The translations under genes and the position numbers were made by a program. The notes below the pieces were generated by a model that had not been told where the DNA came from, did no database searches, and saw only the letters and a list, made by a program, of their open reading frames with translations. Below, piece after piece: positions 8,526 to 21,227 of a DNA stretch of 64,000 nucleotides. Positions within the stretch are counted from its first letter, which is position 1; the number at the start of each line of letters is the position of its first letter. The DNA comes from Thalassomonas viridans (lineage in GTDB: Bacteria > Pseudomonadota > Gammaproteobacteria > Enterobacterales > Alteromonadaceae): contig NZ_CP059733.1 of the NCBI RefSeq assembly GCF_000948985.2, positions 3,968,001-4,032,000 on the forward strand, read 5' to 3'.

Positions 8526-8954
8526 ATGCTCTGCTTATTTTTCTAGTTTTAATAAGATATACATGCTTATCATATGATTTATTTGAAAAAATTGTAACCA
8601 CTCAATTTAAGGATCACATGATTATGAGCTACCCATAAACAAAGCGACCAGGTTAGCCAATAACATAAGTGATTTGCCATACAAGGCTATGCCCTGCGAA
8701 TTTATGACCCCGTCAAGTGCGCTTTGCTCCACATCACCTTAAACACAGCCAAGTTGCTATTTTCCTCTCTTTTATAAAAAAACACCTGATCAACAAAACA
8801 TTTTCTGCGAATATGTTTCACAAACTTAACACCGTCAAGATGCAGGAAGTGTAACAACAAATTAACCAATAAATACCGGCATTATCCCCCTGCAGCCGTG
8901 TCGGCAAAGCTAAGTAATAAGGCTACAAACTTAAAATGGAAAAGGAGAAAAACA
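8526..8954. other. Intergenic region with no recognised element
   Basis: A mostly AT-rich stretch between two divergent genes. No clear sigma-70 pair, terminator or known riboswitch was found. The last 80 nt (GC-rich TGCAGCCGTGTCGGC then GCTAAGTAATAAGGC) could fold but match nothing I recognise. Confidence 0.4.
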
Positions 8955-9002
8955 ATGGAAAAAAGCAGTACAACAATCAAGGCAAAAGGATTTTTATCAT
9001 GA
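8955..9002 (+). CDS. 15-codon leader ORF coupled to the Vps62-related gene
   Basis: An ATG at 8955 with a very good SD (AAAGGAG, 8941-8947) encodes MEKSSTTIKAKGFLS. Its TGA stop overlaps the ATG of the next gene in an ATGA arrangement, so ribosomes finishing it could re-initiate directly. The peptide has no obvious attenuator codon run. It may set the level of the downstream secreted protein; this is inferred from layout only. Confidence 0.5.
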   Translation: MEKSSTTIKAKGFLS

Positions 9003-10564
9003 AGTATAAATACAAAACCACCATCAAGTCACTGGCATTAGTGCTTTGCGCATTAACCGGCAACGCCCTTGCCAACGAAGTTAAGCTGGTGGCAAAACCC
9101 GTCACCCAGTTCGACTGGATTTATGACGACCATGACACAGGCGCCAATGGCGATATCAGTATCTGGCGGCCTAACCTGTCCCACGCCCGTTTTAATGACG
9201 GCAACTATTACAGCCTGGGCGACGTTGCCATGAACAGCCACGGCACGGCCCCTAAAATGGCCATTGCGGTAAAAGCGGTAGCGGCAGATGCCCTCGCCCC
9301 GCCAACAGGCTATGTTAAGGTTTGGGACGACTCCGGCTCAGGCGGCAGCCATGATGTGATTTTCTGGAAACCTGTCGCTCCGTCCGGTTATACCTGCCTG
9401 GGGGATGTTGCCATCAGAAGCTATTCCCAAAGTCCGGATACCAACTGGATCCGCTGCGTTAAAACCGAATACCTGCGCAGCGGCAGCTACCAGAAAATTT
9501 GGGATGACAGCGGCTCGGGCGCCGACGATGACGCCGGCGTATGGCAGGCAACCCCGGCAAGCGGCGACGAAGCCGGTTTGGCGGTTAATACCTTTATCTC
9601 ACGGGGCAGCCATAATGTCGGCGGCCAGCAGTTTTTTGTGTTAGACAAACAAAAACTGCCGGGATTGGGCTTTAGCCAGCAACCAAGTTCGGATGCCGAC
9701 TGGGCGGCCCTAGCGAAAAGCTTTGCTCCCTTGGTTTATCTGCATCAGGACGATGAATTTTTGCCCTCTTCCGTGCCCCACTTTACGCCAAACACCAGCC
9801 CGTTCTCCGGTTATAACGGCAATATCACCGACAATAACGGTTATTTAACCACAGGCTTAAGCTGTGCCATTTGTACCAACCAGACCTTTCTGTACGGCCA
9901 GAATCCGGAGTCGGCCAGCGTGCCGGTTTATGCCAGTATCATCACCAAAAACTCTCCGGCGACAAGTACTGGCGGCATAGAGCCGTCGGATACGGTCACA
10001 GATATTGTCTACTGGATGTTTTATCCCTATAACCGCGGCAAGTGGATTAATCCTATTCTGTGGGATACCACCTGGTACGGTAACCATGTTGGCGACTGGG
10101 AGCATTTAACGGTGCGTTTTGTGAACGGCTATCCGTACCAGGTATATTTAAGCCAGCACGGCGATGGCTCAACCTATATGTTCGGGGATAAAAACCTGAT
10201 GTTAACCGGCACCAGCACGGGAGAGTTCGGCGCCCAGGTATATTCGGCTAAAGGGTCGCACGCCTTGTACGCCTTTGCCGGCAGTTATACTTACCAAAGC
10301 ATTAATATTGTAGTTGACTCTATCGATTTAACCGACCATACCAGCCAGGGTAAGGCATGGCATACTTCGAATAATGTTGAGGTGATGTTCTACCGGACGC
10401 CGGGACAATATACCGGGGATTTTGCCTGGATGAATTATACCGGCCGCTGGGATAATTCGGAGCAGGCCTGTATCAGTACCATAGGCGTCTGCCGCCTGGA
10501 AGACGGCCCGACTGGTCCGATACGTAAAAATGCCCTGAACCCGGGTTATTTCAATTTAGATTAG
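8999..10564 (+). CDS. Secreted Vps62-related protein
   Basis: The 521-residue product starts with a signal peptide (KTTIKSLALVLCALTGNALA), so it is exported. The first half carries repeated beta modules with W-x-x-DxGS/GA patterns (WIYDDHDTGANGDISIW, VWDDSGSGGSHDVIFW, IWDDSGSGADDDAGVW) that end in LGDVA blocks. The second half has FAPLVYLHQDDEFLPSSV, typical of the Vps62/DUF946 family found in fungi, plants and secreted bacterial proteins, with a later GDWEHLTVRF block. The function is not known; a lectin-like or toxin-like role has been suggested for related proteins. The ATG at 8999 is chosen because the signal peptide begins there and AAGGA lies upstream; an in-frame ATG at 8936 would add 21 charged residues before the signal. 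It is preceded by an overlapping 15-codon ORF. Confidence 0.8.
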   Translation: MKYKYKTTIKSLALVLCALTGNALANEVKLVAKPVTQFDWIYDDHDTGANGDISIWRPNLSHARFNDGNYYSLGDVAMNSHGTAPKMAIAVKAVAADALAPPTGYVKVWDDSGSGGSHDVIFWKPVAPSGYTCLGDVAIRSYSQSPDTNWIRCVKTEYLRSGSYQKIWDDSGSGADDDAGVWQATPASGDEAGLAVNTFISRGSHNVGGQQFFVLDKQKLPGLGFSQQPSSDADWAALAKSFAPLVYLHQDDEFLPSSVPHFTPNTSPFSGYNGNITDNNGYLTTGLSCAICTNQTFLYGQNPESASVPVYASIITKNSPATSTGGIEPSDTVTDIVYWMFYPYNRGKWINPILWDTTWYGNHVGDWEHLTVRFVNGYPYQVYLSQHGDGSTYMFGDKNLMLTGTSTGEFGAQVYSAKGSHALYAFAGSYTYQSINIVVDSIDLTDHTSQGKAWHTSNNVEVMFYRTPGQYTGDFAWMNYTGRWDNSEQACISTIGVCRLEDGPTGPIRKNALNPGYFNLD

Positions 10565-12703: not shown

Positions 12704-12843
12704 TACCAAAAAAGAAACCATTATAACCTCAAACCTTTAACAGGATAGGCCTACAACTTAATATCATCGAATAGTAGAGAGGATTACTATGCCTACATCA
12801 TCAAGATTACCTAGCCAATAGCGAACTTTTAGTCATACAGTAA
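12704..12843. other. Flank of the IS21 insertion, with a 10-codon ORF
   Basis: A strong SD (GAGAGGA) precedes ATG at 12790 and a 10-codon frame (MPTSSRLPSQ) that ends at 12822, 22 bp before the IS21 target duplication. It may be a chance frame or the start of a disrupted unit; the sequence right of the IS element (from 17214) does not extend it. Confidence 0.3.
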
Positions 12844-12848
12844 TAAGG
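12844..12848. repeat. IS21 target-site duplication (left copy TAAGG)
   Basis: TAAGG directly precedes the IS21 left end and recurs at 17209-17213 directly after the right end. Confidence 0.85.
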
Positions 12849-12942
12849 TGCGTATTCCGGTGAACGTGCACAGCGATTCCGGTTTTTTCGTGCACACCTG
12901 ATTTTAAACACATTGGGCTCATGATATTTTTAACCTAAGTGT

Positions 12943-13686
12943 TCACACCCCGTCAATTTTTGACTGTAATTTTCGCATGGATTCTCCCTTAAGTTTGAGC
13001 CGGTGGGCGTTGTGCATCAACCGATCTAAAATGGCATCGGCCAGGGTGTTGTCACCAATCGCCTGATACCATTTATCCGTCGGCAACTGACTGATCATTA
13101 GGGTTGATGCCTGCCCATGCCGGTCATCCATAATTTCCATCAGGTCATTACGTTGTACAGCGCTCAGGGGCTCAAGTCCCCAGTCATCCAGGATGAGTAA
13201 ATCAACCTTGGACAGCGATTGAAGTACCTTACTGTAACTGCCATCAGCTTTTGACTGACTCAGCGCAAGCATCAACCGGGAGATCCGATAATATTTCACG
13301 CTATAACCTTTCATGCAGCCGGTGTGGCCCAGCGCACAAGCAATATAGGTTTTTCCGCTACCGCATGGCCCGGTAATGAGCAGATTTTGTGATTTGTTCA
13401 GCCAGTCGCAGTGTAGCAAGGAGGCCATCAGGGATTTCTGTAACCCCCTCGGGTGGTGATAATCAATGTCCCTGGCATTGGCGGCGAGTTTCAGCTTGGC
13501 TCCTTTTAGCAAGCGCTGTTGTTTGCGTTGATCCCGCTCTTGGCTTTCGCTATCGGCAAGCAGCTGTAACCTTTCTTCGAAGGCCAGCCCTTCATAGGTG
13601 CCCGGCTGTTCTGCCTGACTGACCAGCGCATTGGCCATGCCCGTGAGTTTAAGCTGTCTTAACTGCATAATTATGTGCTCTAACAT
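12943..13686 (-). CDS. istB: IS21 helper ATPase IstB
   Basis: A 247-residue AAA+ ATPase related to DnaC that assembles on target DNA and activates the IstA transposase. The N-terminal IstB helical domain (LRQLKLTGMANALVSQAEQP) is followed by a Walker A GPCGSGKT at about residues 106-113 and a Walker B LLILDDWG at about 163-170, with a sensor-like MISQLPTDKW. The length is typical. It follows istA by 15 nt in the same orientation. The gene appears intact, so it could still act in trans with an intact IstA made elsewhere in the genome. Confidence 0.95.
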   Translation of the reverse strand: MLEHIIMQLRQLKLTGMANALVSQAEQPGTYEGLAFEERLQLLADSESQERDQRKQQRLLKGAKLKLAANARDIDYHHPRGLQKSLMASLLHCDWLNKSQNLLITGPCGSGKTYIACALGHTGCMKGYSVKYYRISRLMLALSQSKADGSYSKVLQSLSKVDLLILDDWGLEPLSAVQRNDLMEIMDDRHGQASTLMISQLPTDKWYQAIGDNTLADAILDRLMHNAHRLKLKGESMRKLQSKIDGV

Positions 13687-15170
13687 CTTGTTCTCCTTGA
13701 TTTAGTGGAAGCTTTCCGGACCGCGGATATTTTCATGGTCCTGCGGTAGTAACATGCCTTGGGTCTGGTTTTCCCGCGGTAATTGATCCTGATTGCTCTG
13801 CAGGATTTCCTTGATATGCTTGAGCCGATACAGGTTGTGCTGATTGGCTACCCCACAGGCATTATTGAGCCGGTGAGCGGGATAACTTCTCGATAAATTC
13901 AGCAAGCCCAGGCATACACGGTAGGCCTGCTCTGCATGCTGCTTTTGCTGTAGCTGCATTTGGATCCAGGCCAGGACTTCCTCACCTATATCCTTGGCCC
14001 AGTTCATTAAGCGTCCTGGTGACCAGCGGTGGTGCTTTTCATGTTTGACCGGCATGTGCTCCGGGCGTGTCGTCATCCCGGAGTGATACTTCCTGGGATG
14101 GCTGGTAATGCGTTGATTGTTGAAATAAGCTTCTACCAGGTTGTCTTTGACATGCAGCTCCAGCCTTTCACCGACAAGCTGATGTGGCACTGAGTACAGG
14201 TGATCATCATATTGCACATGGTAACCAATATTCACTTTCACCTGTTTAATATCGGTATATTGATAGGTATGCCTGGGCAGTGGCGTTAGCGCTGGTTTAT
14301 CAAGCGTATCGAAGACGCTCTGCCGGGTGCCTTTGAGTTGTTTGAAGGGCTTATTATTGACCTCAAGCAGCAAGGCCCGGATGCAGTGGTTGAGCTCGGC
14401 CAGTGAGAAGAAGGTTTGGTGACGTAACCGGGCCAGTATCCAGCGCTCAATGATTTGTACACCGACTTCAGCTTTTGCTTTATCCTGTGGCTTTCTCGGC
14501 CTTGCCGGCACAATGGCCGTACCATAATGCTGTGCCAGCTGCTGGTAGCTGGGATTGACGTCCGGATCGTACCGGCAGGCCTTGCTGACACCGCTGCGCA
14601 GGTTATCCGGTACCACGATGTCGGGTACGCCGCCGATAAATTCAAATCCCCTGACATGGCTGCCAATCCAGTCGGACAGGCTCTGGCTGTAGGTGGCCTC
14701 AGCAAAGGTATAGTTCGAGGCTCCCATCACCGCCACAAAGATCTGCGCATGGCGCACCTCGCCCGTGGCGTTGCAGACAATAGGCACCGTTTGCCCGGCA
14801 TAATCGACAAAGAGCTTTTCACCCGCCTTATGCACCTGCCTCATGGAGCGCTTTTGCTTTTTAAGCCAGTGTTTATAGCGGTCGCAGAACTGGGAGTAGC
14901 TGTAGCAACGGTTAGGGTATTGCTGGGTGTATTCCTCCCACAACAGGGTTTTTGTCACCCCTTTAGCTTTTAATGCCTGGTGGATCTCGGCCCAGTCAGG
15001 CATTTCAAAACGCTGTGATGGCCGGGTATCGGCACGCGGGTAGAATTTCATGGCTAACTGGCTGTCATCAAGCTCTTCGGGCAGGGGCCAGGTTAGCGAT
15101 AATGCTTTGGCTTTGGTGAGTAGCTTTTGAATGCCGCTGGGGCTGATTTTAGTGCTGGCACCGATTTTAC

Positions 15171-16917
15171 TGTTGTTCCGCAGTTGATTTTTTTATTTGC
15201 TTTGCTTAAAAAACGCACGAAAACAGCTTTTTTTTAAAATTTCCTTGACGCCGATCCCCTATCTTGATCTATTACTCTTTTTTGAAAGAGAAAAATCATG
15301 GCTTTCCCCTATACAAAAACACTTGAGCATCTTGGCCTTGTTGCCGGTTTCTGCAAGGAAATCGAATTAGCCAATATTATTGACGACAAATTGGGGGCTA
15401 CGAATCGCGATGTCAGTTTTGGCCAACTCTTTGTTGCCATGCTCCTCAATGGCCTGGGGTTTACTGGCCGCACCCTGCATATGTACAGTGAATACTTTGA
15501 AGATAAACCGCTTGATAAGCTTATCGGCCCAGGTATTACCCCGGAGCAGCTAAATGATGATGCATTAGGGCGTTGCCTTGACGCCCTTTATGACGAAGGG
15601 GTTTCCCCGCTTTATCAAAAAATCGGGGAAGCCGTGATTAAGCATTTGGGACTACCTTGTGACTCGGTGCATCTTGATTCCACCAGCTTCCATTATGACG
15701 GGCAAGAGAAGCTGTCAGAGGCGGACTTTAACCCTATTCAAATAACCAAAGGCTATTCCCGTGACCACAGGCCCGAGCTTAATCAGGTGATACTGAACCT
15801 GATTTGTGAAAATCAGTCCGGTATTCCGGTTTATATGAAACCGGCCAGCGGCAACAGCAATGATATGGAAGGGTTTAAAAAGATTGTTAAATCCCATATC
15901 CAGAGTTTGAAAGCGGCTCAGGCCAGCCGTTATCTGGTCGCCGATGCCGCCCTGTATGTTAAGGACACCATCGCCCACCTAGGTGAGCTGGCTCAGTTAT
16001 TTATAACCCGTGTTCCGCAAACCCTAAAAGAAGCCAAAACCCTTACAGCACAAACGCCGATGTTAGATTTTAAGCCAATCTGCGACGGCTATGAAGGCGT
16101 GTGGGCCGAGTCAGATTATGGCGGTGTAGCACAGCGATGGTTACTCATTCGAAGCGAGCAAGCCCGCAAGCGCGAGCGCCATAATCTAGATAAACGCATA
16201 CTGAAAAAAGCCGATGCTGAGCGGAAAACGTTTAAAAAATTGTGTCAGCAGGAATTTGCCTGCGAACAAGATGCACAAAAAGCCATTGAACACTGGCGTC
16301 AAAAGCAAGTTTATCTGGATGTTATCGCTGCAGTTAACAGCGTGCCTGTTTATGGAAGCAAAGGTCGTCCGGCGGTTGGGCAACAACCACAAAGTGTTCA
16401 TTATCAAATCACGGGCAACCTGTTTACACCACTAGCCAAGCGGGAAGATGCGCTCAAGCAACTGGGCCTGTTTATCATTGCCACCAATGACCTGTCAGAA
16501 AACCTGACCATGGATAAGGCGCTGAGTACCTATAAATCGCAACAGGCGGTGGAGAAAGGATTCAGGTTTTTAAAGAGTCCGGACTTTTTTACAAGTGCTA
16601 TTTATCTGAAAAAGCCTGAGCGCATAGAGTCGCTGCTCATGGTTATGACCACTTGCCTGATGGTTTATGCTGCGTTAGAGCATCAAATCCGTAAACAACT
16701 CAAAGCGCAAAACCGACACTTTCTCGACCAAAAGAAGCGACCGAGTCAAAAGCCAACGGCGCGTTGGGTATTCCAATGCTTCCAAGGCGTAACGCTGCTT
16801 TATTTAGAGGGGCAACCCCCTATGGTGGTCAATTGGAAAGCGCGGCAGCAAACCATTATTGACTGTTTAGGTTGCGTTTACAGGCAAATTTATTCCTAAA
16901 AGAGGTGCGGGACATCG
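15171..16917 (+). mobile_element. IS1634-type insertion sequence nested in istA
   Basis: It is bounded by an 8-bp direct duplication GATTTTAC (15163-15170 and 16918-16925). The ends share a short imperfect inverted repeat (TGTTCCGCA inside the left end, TGTCCCGCA in reverse inside the right end). Length is about 1747 bp, with one transposase gene. Removal of the element and one duplication copy restores the istA frame exactly, which fixes the boundaries. Confidence 0.88.
15298..16899 (+). CDS. IS1634 family DDE transposase
   Basis: A 533-residue transposase of the IS4 supergroup. The N-terminal DUF4277 region (EHLGLVAGFCKEIELANIID ... GQLFVAMLLNGLGFTGRTLH) covers roughly residues 10-110. Catalytic residues are in VHLDSTSFHYDG (first Asp, about 125), YLVADAALY (second Asp, about 216) and the QQAVEKGFRFLKSP block (Glu, about 420), the last with the Y/E spacing of the IS1634 family. 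The gene is full length with no frame break, so the element may still be mobile. It lies opposite in orientation to istA, which it interrupts. Confidence 0.93.
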   Translation: MAFPYTKTLEHLGLVAGFCKEIELANIIDDKLGATNRDVSFGQLFVAMLLNGLGFTGRTLHMYSEYFEDKPLDKLIGPGITPEQLNDDALGRCLDALYDEGVSPLYQKIGEAVIKHLGLPCDSVHLDSTSFHYDGQEKLSEADFNPIQITKGYSRDHRPELNQVILNLICENQSGIPVYMKPASGNSNDMEGFKKIVKSHIQSLKAAQASRYLVADAALYVKDTIAHLGELAQLFITRVPQTLKEAKTLTAQTPMLDFKPICDGYEGVWAESDYGGVAQRWLLIRSEQARKRERHNLDKRILKKADAERKTFKKLCQQEFACEQDAQKAIEHWRQKQVYLDVIAAVNSVPVYGSKGRPAVGQQPQSVHYQITGNLFTPLAKREDALKQLGLFIIATNDLSENLTMDKALSTYKSQQAVEKGFRFLKSPDFFTSAIYLKKPERIESLLMVMTTCLMVYAALEHQIRKQLKAQNRHFLDQKKRPSQKPTARWVFQCFQGVTLLYLEGQPPMVVNWKARQQTIIDCLGCVYRQIYS

Positions 16918-17086
16918 GATTTTACGGACACTGAGTCGGGCAACAAAATGCAGCCTCAACACTTCTCTGATTTTACGCATTGTGATCCTTTTATTCGCCA
17001 TATCCCTGCCTCAGTGATGAAAAAGGGAATAGCTTAACAAATAGATTGAATTATCAATGCGTTGAAAGATTCTGGTTGGGTGTGCA

Positions 17087-17208
17087 CACCGATTCCGGAA
17101 ATTCAGCAAAAGTGTGCACGCTAAATCCGGAATCAGTGTTCACACTAAAACCAGAATAGGTGTGCACATTGGCCCGGAATCACTGTGCACGTTGAGCCGG
17201 AATATGCA
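17087..17208. repeat. Five tandem IS21 end units
   Basis: Units of about 22-25 bp each contain GTG(T)GCAC or GTGTTCAC followed by a CCGGAAT or CCAGAAT core. They form the right end of the IS21 element. A plus-strand open frame across them (17114-17311) is a by-product of the repeats and is not annotated. Confidence 0.8.
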
Positions 17209-17285
17209 TAAGGATGGCTGCGAAAGCCTTCATGCTTTTTTTATCTACTCAACGGTATTCATGATAGACATATTCCGGACACAAA

Positions 17286-17309
17286 AAAGCCGCAAATATA
17301 TGCGGCTTT
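17286..17309 (-). terminator. Rho-independent terminator, mainly minus strand
   Basis: AAAGCCGCA/TGCGGCTTT (17286-17294 with 17301-17309) with a 6-nt loop is followed on the minus strand by a run of T. It is the first terminator downstream of the CHAT gene and the gene fragment after it. Confidence 0.75.
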
Positions 17310-17374
17310 AAATGCACACTCAAGATTAACAAAAAATTAAAAAGTCACAACCTAAATTTATTCACATTTACTCT

Positions 17375-17509
17375 TTAATTACGCGTTAATTCTAGTTTGA
17401 TCGCCCAAGCCTTAAACACTGTCGTCTCCATTATTTCATCTAAAGTTGGTGGTCGAAAAAAGTTCGAGGCTAGGCCACCGTCTTCAAACCAAAAGCTGCC
17501 TTTAACATC
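17375..17509 (-). pseudogene. C-terminal fragment of an unknown protein
   Basis: A 44-codon minus-strand frame without a start codon is bounded upstream by TGA (17510-17512). It reads like real protein (it includes GSFWFEDGGLASNFFRPP and ends KLELTRN). It directly follows the CHAT gene. It looks like the remnant of a gene, or of a longer CHAT-gene partner, lost by deletion near the IS21 insertion. The family is not recognised. Confidence 0.4.
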
Positions 17510-17525
17510 TCAGTGGTAATATCAC

Positions 17526-19679
17526 TTAATCTTTAAATATTATTCTAATATTTTCAGGTCTTCCCAATTGCATATAATACATAGATTCAGTGATACCTAT
17601 TTCATCTACCAAGTTAAACAAAGCTTTTTCATCTAATTTACTTTCAATTGATACTGCGTTTATTACTTTCTCAAACCAAGATTCTTGGTAGCTATTTACA
17701 ACCTCATTGCCAAAGATATGAAGTTTTTTGTATTGCTTTTGATCAATGATCTTATAGTCCTCTTTAAACGCTTGCAGAATATCCGTGCAATAAGACATTC
17801 GAAAAAAACCTGTGATAAATTCTCTCCATGTGAGGTGATCAATACCTAATTTTTCTACAGCGTTAAGAAACCCAGAAAGTCTATAAATTATTCTTCCCAT
17901 AAATATGGAAGACTTTGCTGCATCAACAGGTAAAAATGTTCCTAATACACTTAAAGCCCCTGATTTAATTAAGCCATTAGCAAATGAAGCATGGGAGCCA
18001 CTCACAGCAGAAGTTAGGCAAGCACTTAGTAAAACAATTGTTGGGATAGGTGCTTTATATGTCAATGACCATGAATCAACCTTATCTTCACCTATTTGTA
18101 ACCAGCCATGACTTTCAGAGCCACCGTGCTCTCCATGACAATCGAAAATTAAAATATGGCTATTACATTCATTTAATGCGCGAATCAATTCAATCTCACT
18201 TGAGACATCTACAATTTTTATGGTTACCAAATTATCAATATCGGCAAAATGCTTTAGTGACATTTCAAGCATACTTTTTATTGGGTCATTGTCTTTAAAT
18301 GACCGTATTACAGTAACAACAAATAATTCACTTTTATGAACTTTAACATTAACAGATTGGGACGAATTCAGTAAAAACATATTTCCAGGTGTAGTATGAA
18401 TCTTTGATATTTCGTGAGTAAACATGAGTGGAATTTTATCGAAGCTAACCCACTCTAACGGAGTATCAGTGCACAATGTGATGGAGTTACTTTTTTCTTT
18501 AATAAATTCAATTAATTCAGAGCCTATTTCATTTTTTATAGTTGAGACCAGATTTTTAAATTTTTTATTGAAGTTTAGAATTTGTTTTTTGCCTGAGAGC
18601 TTTGATAATTTTTCAAGCTCTCTAATTTCACCTGTATGAAAGTTTATAGCATTTGGTAATCTTATAGCGGGGGAGCAGTTCAATATCGAAAGAAACTGTA
18701 TTGCTAAGGTTGTAAGCGCAAGCTCTGATTGTCTCATCGAGAGTATTGTACCAGCTTCTGGGTAATCCCACAGATTGAAAGGCTCTTCTGTTTCTATAAT
18801 TAGACCGGAGTAATTAGGGTTTTTAAAAACCCCATTTTTAATAAGTTCTTTAATCTTTTTATTTTTTATTTTCCGAAACACCTGATTCCACCAATGACTG
18901 TTAAATTTGTATAGGTGGTTATAAATACTCGGCGAATAAACAATTAAGTCCGATTTACTTATATCCTTTTCTTGACCAGCAATTGTAAGAAGATTACTCG
19001 CTGCTTCAATGATTGCTCTTACATACCCTGATTTTTCAGGACTACCTGGTATGAATTTAACTTCTTTGAATTCATATCCAAACCCCTCAACTACGCTTTC
19101 AGTAGCACAAGTGACGCCATGATTACGAGAAATAAATCCAGGATCAGTTAACTCTTTATTTCTGAGACTTTTCTTTTCAAGCAATTGTATTAATTCTATT
19201 TTGTCATTGTTTTTATCGACATATAACTTCAGGCGTTCATATAATATTTCATCAAGAATATAGCAGTTGAAGTCTTGGTTAATATTTACATCACTGTTTT
19301 TGTTAGTGCTGGCCGTTATAGGAGAATATTTAAATTCATTCTTTATACTACTAATAAACTCCAAATCAGATGGCAAATAGGTTAAGACAACAAAAGAGTG
19401 TTCTTTCAATAACGGCAAAAAAGACCTCAGTGCAGTAGGTCTTAATAAAAAAATGTTAGGTTTAAAGTAATGATTTCTGAAATATATTAACTCCTCTTGA
19501 GTCATAAATATTTCTTGCACCTCTTGGGGGAAGATAGAAAATTTAGATAAATTTTGAATGTATTGGGGGTCTAGAATTTCGGCTAAAAACCCTTGAAATA
19601 GGGATTGCGCAGATTCATCATCTGACTCAGGCATAATGAAAATATTAATTATAGACGTATAACTTAACTCTAAATTCAT
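17526..19679 (-). CDS. CHAT-domain (caspase-like protease) protein
   Basis: A 717-residue protein. The C-terminal third (about 400-660) is a CHAT domain: TDTPLEWVSFDKIP (405-418) corresponds to the conserved entry segment, the catalytic His is in DCHGEHGG (His515), and the catalytic Cys in LSACLTS (Cys554), followed by GLIKSGALSVLGTFLPVDA. The N-terminal 400 residues have no TPR pattern or other domain that I recognise, apart from CATESVVEGFGYEF at about 191-204, so the usual TPR partner is absent. It has no signal peptide or membrane segment. The gene is clearly AT-rich compared with its neighbours and lies between an IS21 element and a tRNA-Leu array, suggesting horizontal acquisition. CHAT proteases occur in caspase-like defence and cell-death systems (for example TPR-CHAT with type III-E CRISPR and gasdermin-associated proteases), but no partner gene is visible. 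A GGAAC sequence 5 nt before the ATG is the likely SD; a four-codon ORF overlaps the start by ATGA. Confidence 0.85.
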   Translation of the reverse strand: MNLELSYTSIINIFIMPESDDESAQSLFQGFLAEILDPQYIQNLSKFSIFPQEVQEIFMTQEELIYFRNHYFKPNIFLLRPTALRSFLPLLKEHSFVVLTYLPSDLEFISSIKNEFKYSPITASTNKNSDVNINQDFNCYILDEILYERLKLYVDKNNDKIELIQLLEKKSLRNKELTDPGFISRNHGVTCATESVVEGFGYEFKEVKFIPGSPEKSGYVRAIIEAASNLLTIAGQEKDISKSDLIVYSPSIYNHLYKFNSHWWNQVFRKIKNKKIKELIKNGVFKNPNYSGLIIETEEPFNLWDYPEAGTILSMRQSELALTTLAIQFLSILNCSPAIRLPNAINFHTGEIRELEKLSKLSGKKQILNFNKKFKNLVSTIKNEIGSELIEFIKEKSNSITLCTDTPLEWVSFDKIPLMFTHEISKIHTTPGNMFLLNSSQSVNVKVHKSELFVVTVIRSFKDNDPIKSMLEMSLKHFADIDNLVTIKIVDVSSEIELIRALNECNSHILIFDCHGEHGGSESHGWLQIGEDKVDSWSLTYKAPIPTIVLLSACLTSAVSGSHASFANGLIKSGALSVLGTFLPVDAAKSSIFMGRIIYRLSGFLNAVEKLGIDHLTWREFITGFFRMSYCTDILQAFKEDYKIIDQKQYKKLHIFGNEVVNSYQESWFEKVINAVSIESKLDEKALFNLVDEIGITESMYYMQLGRPENIRIIFKD

Positions 19680-19872
19680 AAACGTTCCATGTATTTGTTT
19701 TTATTGTGTCTTTATAAATTGATCCTACCATAAAAAAGCTTATTAATGGATAATAGACAAAGTTGGCCCCCATAAACTGGTAATAGTAAGAAAGGACCTA
19801 CAATTATCCAAAGTGAGTAAGAAATACACAGAAAGAAGCTTACAGTACTTATATACCGCAGCCCTCTTAAAT
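19680..19872. other. AT-rich spacer upstream of the CHAT gene
   Basis: No gene is seen. The block at 19843-19870 resembles the terminator region that follows the intact tRNA-Leu genes (compare 20878-20916), so it is probably the decayed terminator of the pseudo-tRNA next to it. Confidence 0.5.
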
Positions 19873-19957
19873 TGGTGTGGATGGAGGGAGTTTCCTCCTC
19901 ACTTTCTAAAGCGTAATCCCTTCAAAATTCTGACGCTATTATTTACAGTCTTGAAAG
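19873..19957 (-). pseudogene. Decayed tRNA-Leu copy
   Basis: Aligned with the intact tRNA-Leu genes at 20917 and 21143, the 3' end (acceptor side and T-arm stem, 19873-19898) is nearly identical apart from C-to-T and GAA-to-TCC changes in the T loop. The variable arm and anticodon region are recognisable but mutated, and the D-arm and 5' acceptor strand are lost. It cannot form a functional tRNA. It is either a third tandem copy that has decayed or a leftover attachment-site duplicate of an integrated element. Confidence 0.7.
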
Positions 19958-19958
19958 G

Positions 19959-20573
19959 TTAGAAGGGATCACCATCGTTAACCATATAAATAGTGCTGCC
20001 GTAACGTCCACTACTGCCATTAAAGTAATTTTCTAAGGTAGCAGTAATAGGTGCAGTATCAAAACAGCTGCTGGCATCCCACTTTATTATTCCAGTACCA
20101 AATGCGGCAACATTAGTCTGAATTCCTATCAGGCCATAACTTTCAGCGGGCATCTGTGCACCAGAGCTTTTTAATGGGTCATTACTAGTTGAAAATATAC
20201 CAGCGAAAGCTTCTGGGTTTATGTTAATTTTATTGCCGCTGGTTTCACTAAAATATTTAGCCTGAAAGAAAAGATTTACAGGTTGGTTTTGATTGTTAAC
20301 CACATAAATATGTGTGCCCCTGCTATTAGAGCTTGTCATTCTTATATGTGGGATGTTTGCAGAGCCAGAGTAAAAAACAGCAGTGTCTTCGGTAACAAAA
20401 GTATGGATTGCGGGATCATATTCAACCAATTGTTGTAGCTCATCATAGATATATTCCGTACCCGCACATTTTTCTGTGTCGATCTGATATTTACCTGTAT
20501 CAACTTCAGATGCTAAAGCACTTGCACTTGATAGTGCTACTGTTACGCCTAATAGAATATGTTTAACCATCAT
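19959..20573 (-). CDS. Exported protein of unknown function
   Basis: A 204-residue protein with a clear signal peptide (KHILLGVTVALSSASALA), so it is periplasmic or secreted. The mature part has two Cys (in TEKCAGTEY and DASSCFDTAP), which may form a disulfide, and a beta-rich composition (SRGTHIYVVNNQNQPVNLFF, GRYGSTIYMVND). No domain is recognised. A good SD (AAGGAAG) precedes two adjacent ATG codons at 20571 and 20568. It lies inside the tRNA-Leu array, between the decayed copy and the two intact copies, so it probably arrived with an inserted segment. Confidence 0.7.
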   Translation of the reverse strand: MMVKHILLGVTVALSSASALASEVDTGKYQIDTEKCAGTEYIYDELQQLVEYDPAIHTFVTEDTAVFYSGSANIPHIRMTSSNSRGTHIYVVNNQNQPVNLFFQAKYFSETSGNKININPEAFAGIFSTSNDPLKSSGAQMPAESYGLIGIQTNVAAFGTGIIKWDASSCFDTAPITATLENYFNGSSGRYGSTIYMVNDGDPF

Positions 20574-20877
20574 CTTTCTTCCTTATCTTGATTAAGTTAT
20601 TTAAAAGCCTGCTGCAAAATAGACTAGCTTTTATTTAGCAAACATTCACAGCTTTGCGGGCTAACCTGAATATCAAAAATTCCTTTGATTTCGATTTCCG
20701 CGGGAGGTGATTGTAAACATAGACAGAAGGAATGAGCAAAAAACTAGAGCAAACCTAAACTTTCCCCATAAAAATGGTAGACAACAAATATTAAAAGCGA
20801 ATTGAATTAATCGAAGCCACGGGACTGGCAACAATCAATTGCCGCTCTAACAGAAATGATTTTCGATACAAAGAAAA
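20574..20877. other. Intergenic stretch, nothing recognised
   Basis: AT-rich sequence between the exported protein gene and the tRNA-Leu terminator. No promoter, RNA or gene could be supported. Confidence 0.4.
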
Positions 20878-20907
20878 AAGCCTGCAGTACTTATGCACTA
20901 CAGGCTT
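20873..20907 (-). terminator. Terminator after the second tRNA-Leu
   Basis: AAGCCTGCAGT/ACTACAGGCTT (20878-20888 with 20897-20907), one mismatch, with a T-run on the minus strand (20874-20879). Confidence 0.85.
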
Positions 20908-20916
20908 ATCTAAAAT

Positions 20917-21001
20917 TGGTGCGGATGGAGGGAGTTGAACCCTCACGCCCTAAGGCACAGCCCCCTCAAGACTGCGTGTCTACCAATTCCACCACATCCG
21001 C
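20917..21001 (-). tRNA. leuU: tRNA-Leu(GAG), second copy
   Basis: The 85-nt gene with encoded CCA begins GCGGATG at 21001 and ends ACCA at 20917. The anticodon loop is TTGAGGG with a five-pair stem, giving anticodon GAG (reads CUC and CUU). The long variable arm of a type II tRNA is present. It is identical to the copy at 21143-21227. The position downstream of secG matches E. coli leuU. Confidence 0.97.
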
Positions 21002-21142: not shown

Positions 21143-21227
21143 TGGTGCGGATGGAGGGAGTTGAACCCTCACGCCCTAAGGCACAGCCCCCTCAAGACTG
21201 CGTGTCTACCAATTCCACCACATCCGC
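21143..21227 (-). tRNA. leuU: tRNA-Leu(GAG), first copy
   Basis: Identical in sequence to the copy at 20917-21001: GCGGATG 5' acceptor strand, anticodon GAG, long variable arm, encoded CCA. It lies 17 nt after the secG stop codon and may be co-transcribed with tpiA-secG. Confidence 0.97.

What the first reader, a model, noticed from the sequence alone, without database searches (positions are those of the whole stretch)
17526..19679. Orphan CHAT caspase-like gene in an AT-rich stretch between an IS element and a tRNA array
The gene encodes a full-length protein with both catalytic residues in a CHAT domain (His515 in DCHGEHGG, Cys554 in LSACLTS). Its N-terminal 400 residues match no domain I recognise, and there is no TPR partner, CRISPR type III-E array, gasdermin or toxin gene nearby. 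The AT-rich composition, IS21 on one side and tRNA-Leu on the other suggest acquired DNA. CHAT proteases are central to several defence and cell-death systems, so a one-gene system with an unknown sensing domain is possible.
Basis: partly seen in the sequence, partly recalled or inferred. Interest (0 to 1): 0.7.

Follow-up and report, generated by a model that had tools for sequence, protein, structure and literature searches.

The report
Borvo-family antiphage caspase-like protease gene

Summary
It is not an orphan: over its whole length it matches PADLOC's BovA profile (residues 6-714 of 717, E 3.4e-217), the protein of the one-gene Borvo system. His515 and Cys554 are identical in 51 of 51 aligned homologues. 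It is accessory DNA: a full-length match occurs in 1 of 196 family genomes and 1 of 369 class genomes searched, the window's own both times. Its site, between a LysR gene and tRNA-Leu genes, exists in 4 of 4 genus genomes with four different contents, one nearly empty. Some relatives lie beside phage integrases or Gabija, Rosmer and Mokosh genes. A confident model (pLDDT 90.4) shows that part of the 'unknown' N-terminus, from about residue 184, matches the protease unit of Craspase Csx29 and separase; about residues 1-180 stay unassigned, with a generic Rossmann-like fold. Most likely mechanism: sensing of phage replication (DNA polymerase, from the literature), protease activation, abortive infection. 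Sensing, substrate and outcome were not tested.

The parts
17526..19679 (-). bovA-like gene (Borvo), 717 aa, CHAT caspase-like protease
   Evidence: PADLOC PDLC03831 BovA, 721.5 bits, residues 6-714
18135..18137 (-). codon of catalytic His515
   Evidence: Identical in 51 of 51 homologues; position in the caspase fold inferred from the model
18018..18020 (-). codon of catalytic Cys554
   Evidence: Identical in 51 of 51 homologues
19140..19679 (-). residues 1-180: Rossmann-like region, candidate sensor
18486..19130 (-). residues about 184-398: pseudo-caspase/linker part of the protease unit
   Evidence: separase 5fby aligns to model 184-717; borders inferred
17529..18485 (-). residues 399-717: active caspase-like (CHAT) part
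17286..17309 (-). terminator-like hairpin downstream of bovA
   Evidence: 2 sites found in 2.9 kb, 1.0 expected from shuffles, so weak
12708..20841 (.). variable stretch between conserved flanks (LysR/90-aa ORF side and tRNA-Leu/secG side)
   Evidence: site present in 4 of 4 genus genomes, four different contents
12849..17208 (.). IS21-family element, target duplication TAAGG at 12844-12848 and 17209-17213, interrupted by a second transposase gene (15298-16899)
19824..19925 (-). decayed tRNA-Leu 3' half with 3' flank
   Evidence: 74% identity over 104 columns to 20866-20969
19959..20573 (-). 204-aa ORF without family match, neighbour of bovA
   Evidence: 87% relative at another locus of genome G095
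20917..21001 (-). tRNA-Leu (GAG)
21143..21227 (-). tRNA-Leu (GAG)

Best explanation
The gene encodes a BovA protein, the only component of a Borvo antiphage system. The protein is a compact separase/Csx29-like cysteine protease: an N-terminal Rossmann-like region (about 1-180, candidate sensor), a pseudo-caspase/linker region (about 184-398) and an active caspase region with the His515/Cys554 dyad. In the uninfected cell it should be held inactive. A phage replication component, most likely the DNA polymerase or a complex it forms, would be sensed and would allosterically order the active site; the protease would then cleave one or more cell proteins and stop the cell before phage is released. 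Shown here: family membership by sequence, invariant dyad, predicted fold, patchy distribution, variable insertion site. From literature passages: escape mutations in phage DNA polymerase. Inferred: which domain senses, autoinhibition, the substrate, and abortive infection in this host. I put the family assignment at about 0.95 and the mechanism as a whole at about 0.55; the figure below is for the statement's core (a Borvo-type antiphage protease).
Against: No activity was tested. In the window no defence gene other than bovA was found among 12 ORFs of 8-22.4 kb scanned with PADLOC (the one hit above 50 bits, DrmD, is to the IS21 helper istB), so bovA is not in a dense defence island here, and no tyrosine or serine recombinase was seen in the variable stretch. 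8 of the 11 homologue loci scanned were not tied to a recognised defence gene (one search listed only 25 of its 94 families; one search hits were not traced). The two studies that define Borvo and its trigger were not held. E. coli phage-borne copies are only about 35% identical to this protein, so the trigger may differ. Foldseek TM-scores to Csx29 and separase are low (0.30 or less), so the kinship rests on the protease unit alone.
Confidence: 0.8

Rival explanations
1. The gene is the protease half of a pair: it activates a separate effector (a gasdermin-like pore former or a Csx30-like protein) encoded nearby.
For: [quoted passage not shown] The 204-aa ORF at 19959-20573 is adjacent and has no family match.
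Against: Among 14 BovA loci and the window no gene is shared next to bovA; the recurring families are integrases, two pairs of metabolic/regulatory genes (L012 and L020) and LysR-type genes. The 204-aa ORF has an 87% relative at another locus of G095, a genome without a full-length BovA match; by eye its N-terminus looks like a signal peptide, so it is probably exported.
Confidence: 0.08
2. A CHAT protease with a housekeeping or developmental role (for example regulated proteolysis in stress or cell differentiation), kept in few lineages, with no antiphage role.
For: CHAT and separase-like proteases serve many cellular roles (recalled); no antiphage test has been made on this homologue.
Against: Very patchy distribution, carriage by temperate phages and by plasmids, lower GC than its locus in 12 of 12 loci, variable site, full-length match to an antiphage family.
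Confidence: 0.07
3. The protein is a selfish addiction or exclusion module of a mobile element: it acts against competing phages or plasmids of the same element class and not as a defence of the host.
For: Position next to the integrase in phage Ayreon and an E. coli prophage; integrase genes in the loci of L010, L013, L018, L019.
Against: Compatible with, not opposed to, Borvo; in the window the carrier element is no longer visible, yet the ORF is intact.
Confidence: 0.05

Closest known systems
Borvo (BovA), PADLOC PDLC03831
   Same: Full-length profile match, about 720 aa, CHAT protease domain, single gene
   Different: About 35% identity to the E. coli phage-borne copies; activity of this homologue not shown; sits alone in a tRNA-Leu-side variable site with IS elements
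Csx29 (TPR-CHAT) of type III-E CRISPR Craspase
   Different: No TPR family match in BovA; no Cas7-11 or Csx30 recognised among the neighbouring ORFs scanned; 12% identity in the aligned part
Eukaryotic separase
   Different: Lacks the large helical repeat part of separase (recalled); 13% identity in the aligned part; bacterial accessory gene
SAVED-CHAT (8tl0)
   Different: No SAVED domain match in BovA; only the active caspase part is shared

Membership tests
Borvo | Full-length match to the BovA family profile | tested here: met
   residues 6-714 of 717 against profile 5-713 of 720, E 3.4e-217
Borvo | CHAT protease domain with His/Cys dyad | tested here: met
   (sub-threshold)
Borvo | Single-gene system without a conserved partner | tested here: met
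   no gene shared next to bovA among 14 loci (L010 and L018 are from one genome) and the window. A two-gene 'Borvo-like' form exists in S. thermophilus (PMC12322248 passage)
Borvo | Antiphage activity | not testable with these tools
   Needs plaque assays
Borvo | Escape by phage DNA polymerase mutations; abortive infection | not testable with these tools
   Known only from secondary passages
Csx29 / Craspase | TPR domain fused to the protease | tested here: not met
   Pfam at E up to 1 lists only CHAT; by sequence only
Csx29 / Craspase | Pseudo-caspase plus active caspase arrangement | tested here: inconclusive
   One search supports it by fold alignment; coordinates of the pseudo-caspase were not inspected
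Csx29 / Craspase | Type III-E genes (Cas7-11, Csx30) in the locus | tested here: inconclusive
   12 ORFs of 8-22.4 kb scanned with PADLOC and 7 of them with Pfam: none recognised; no dedicated profile or repeat-array search
Gasdermin-activating CHAT protease | Adjacent gasdermin gene | tested here: inconclusive
   Adjacent 204-aa and 90-aa ORFs have no Pfam match above cut-off; no dedicated gasdermin profile was run

The most novel reading that the evidence does not exclude
Borvo is a free-standing miniature relative of the Craspase/separase protease: the same tandem pseudo-caspase and caspase unit, with the TPR/RNA-guided sensor replaced by a fused Rossmann-like domain that reads the phage replication machinery directly, so that one polypeptide does sensing, allosteric switching and proteolysis.
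Probability: 0.4. Interest if true: 0.45.

Novelty: new member of a known kind. Interest (0 to 1): 0.25.

Why it matters
Borvo's activation mechanism was still called unclear in 2024 (PMC11348598 passage). The predicted separase/Csx29-like architecture, the short unassigned N-terminal region (about 1-180) and the list of invariant residues give concrete constructs for finding how BovA senses phage and what it cuts. The site is a small, clean example of a variable insertion spot beside tRNA-Leu with an almost empty counterpart in a relative.

Tried and rejected

Considered and dropped: a core gene at a fixed locus; a partner gene in the 204-aa ORF. Six further family genomes pass E 0.001, but over only about 53-58 of 720 profile positions inside ORFs of 1042-1104 aa; I do not count them as BovA. 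The word 'bova' alone gave 5,207 papers, and none of the 20 listed titles is about this protein. Promoter-like sites (9) were fewer than in shuffles (11.7). The tree puts the window with P0002-P0005 at full support; Vibrionaceae copies fall in two separate places (L014/L016 apart from L010), which fits horizontal transfer, but several deep forks are weakly supported and some branches are long.

Rows dropped before counts: alignment A4 has 51 rows: the window, 38 of the 43 non-self proteins (five short or partial ones left out: P0024, P0028, P0030, P0039, P0042), P0045, and 11 locus rows (L009, L013, L018 left out). The first neighbour scan used 72 ORFs from 11 of 12 loci (L013 left out, only two ORFs for L018, ORFs of roughly 150 aa or more, some of that size not chosen). 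One search printed 25 of 94 families; one search hits (RtcR types, mad2, RTasMBL, LmuA) were not traced to loci.

On rechecking I corrected the statement on recurring neighbours (one search also shows gene pairs shared by L012 and L020 and LysR-type genes), corrected the GC range, and added.

Full report
Observation. The minus-strand ORF 17526-19679 encodes 717 aa from an ATG. GC is 0.33 over 18-20 kb, against 0.46-0.53 in 13-17 and 21-25 kb. It is the only match in its 7.95-Mb genome.

Identity. Pfam sees only a sub-threshold CHAT match (22.4 bits, cut-off 24), NCBIfam nothing, the PDB by sequence nothing. PADLOC's BovA profile matches residues 6-714 with 721.5 bits, E 3.4e-217. A review table lists Borvo under CHAT protease, citing Millman et al. 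2022 (PMC10952713, passage seen); the original paper is not held, and that BovA is its single protein is recalled. The nearest homologue with a species name is from Thalassotalea piscium, 72% identical. A homologue in E. coli phage Ayreon, 35% identical over the full length, matches the same profile with 801.5 bits, and a homologue on a Rhizobium plasmid typed as conjugative with 686.9.

Active site and conservation. In 51 aligned homologues (choice of rows in Tried and rejected) H515, C554, D465, D513, R340, W410 and P417 are identical in all 51; C514 is kept in 50 and H518 in 49. Conservation is highest at 521-600 and lowest at 121-240, as expected if the protease is constant and the N-terminal part varies with its target (inference).

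Distribution. A full-length match occurs in 1 of 196 genomes of the family and in 1 of 369 of the class, in both cases the window's own genome. In GTDB species genomes a pattern scan found 86 stretches, of which 12 loci encode a relative: Vibrio cincinnatiensis (twice), Aliivibrio, Enterovibrio, Photobacterium, Pseudomonas, Stutzerimonas, Dyella, Legionella, an Acidovorax MAG, and MAGs labelled Verrucomicrobiales and Sedimentisphaerales. The gene has a lower GC than its locus in 12 of 12, sometimes only slightly. Ten plasmid records hold a relative, only one of them over 80% of the query in one place. Three phage records hold one over the full length, two of them versions of one phage. The Ayreon version occurs in 30 of 5,426 complete E. 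coli genomes, on the chromosome each time. In Ayreon and in the one E. coli chromosome that I opened, it lies directly after the integrase. This is a mobile accessory gene.

Neighbours of homologues. I scanned 72 neighbouring ORFs from 11 of the 12 loci. L009 has Rosmer-type RmrT and RmrA on one side and Gabija GajB and GajA on the other; L015 has Mokosh MkoA and MkoB and an LmuB-like gene; L012 has a Dsr2-like gene (the system names Gabija and Mokosh are recalled from the gene names). So at least 3 of 11 loci lie near recognised defence genes. One search gave six further profile hits that I did not trace. Across 14 loci and the window, no gene is shared next to bovA. What recurs is: integrases of the Phage_integrase family in L010, L013, L018, L019 and L048; an aldehyde dehydrogenase and a regulator with the same C-terminal domains in both L012 and L020, 2.9 kb or more from bovA; LysR-type genes in L014 and the window; one weak pair (L017 and L020, E 8e-5); and the duplicate stretches of L010 and L018. 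This fits a one-gene system, in part on integrating elements.

The locus here. All four genus genomes held, the window's included, have the same site: LysR gene and 90-aa ORF on one side, tRNA-Leu genes (two, or three in G095) and secG on the other. The content differs: about 70 bp in G013, 3.4 kb in G061 (a Y1-transposase-like gene below the Pfam cut-off and a 540-aa ORF without family match), 2.1 kb in G095, and 8.1 kb here. Of the 8.1 kb, 4.36 kb is an IS21-family element (12849-17208, target duplication TAAGG) into whose transposase region a second insertion sequence has gone. Between bovA and the 204-aa ORF lies a decayed tRNA-Leu 3' half with its flank (19824-19925, 74% over 104 columns). 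The 204-aa ORF with part of this remnant recurs at 87% at another locus of G095, so it may be a separate passenger that used the tRNA end as attachment site (inference). Of 12 ORFs of 8-22.4 kb scanned with PADLOC, only bovA gives a convincing defence match; the IS21 helper gene istB also matches DrmD (100 bits), which I read as kinship of the ATPase.

Mechanism. Literature passages say that phage DNA polymerase mutations allow escape from Borvo and that the mechanism of activation is unclear (PMC11348598; PMC10732053 also names Borvo among systems activated by replication components). A two-gene 'Borvo-like' system of S. thermophilus inhibited Vansinderenvirus; its table row reads 'Unknown' and then 'Yes', which I take as mechanism and abortive infection, though the column heads were not in the passage (PMC12322248). 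From these and the fold I propose: inactive protease, recognition of a replication component through the N-terminal region, allosteric ordering of the His515/Cys554 site as described for TPR-CHAT, cleavage of cell proteins, abortive infection. Only family, dyad, fold and distribution are supported here; the trigger is taken from distant relatives and the substrate is unknown.

Verdict. The added value is the predicted Csx29/separase-like architecture of BovA and the mapped variable site. My literature searches showed, among the titles and abstract starts listed, none that reports a BovA structure or mechanism; the library lacks most subscription papers and preprints, so this does not show that none exists.

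Noticed in passing
window 19824-19925 and 20866-20969: A decayed tRNA-Leu 3' half with its 3' flank lies about 1 kb downstream of the intact tRNA-Leu genes, with a 204-aa ORF in between; part of it travels with that ORF in a relative.
   Followed up: partly
L045 3020-4642 (genome G061, same site): At the same insertion site a relative carries a 540-aa ORF without Pfam or PADLOC match, next to a Y1-transposase-like gene.
   Followed up: partly
L047 3238-6083 (genome G095): The 87% relative of the 204-aa ORF lies near two similar 159-aa ORFs and a gene matching the type VI amidase effector family Tae4.
   Followed up: no
L010 and L018 (Vibrio cincinnatiensis): Two contigs of one genome carry near-identical BovA stretches with related integrase genes: a duplicated element or an assembly effect.
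   Followed up: no
L017 10501-10574 and L019 9976-10051: In 2 of 12 homologue loci a tRNA gene (Asn, Thr) lies within 0.4 kb of the 3' end of the BovA gene.
   Followed up: no
window 8936-10564: A 542-aa gene matches the Vps62 family (Pfam PF06101, 130 bits), unusual by its name in a bacterium.
   Followed up: no
window 12943-13686: The istB gene of the IS21-family element matches the PADLOC model DrmD with 100 bits, a likely source of false defence calls.
   Followed up: no
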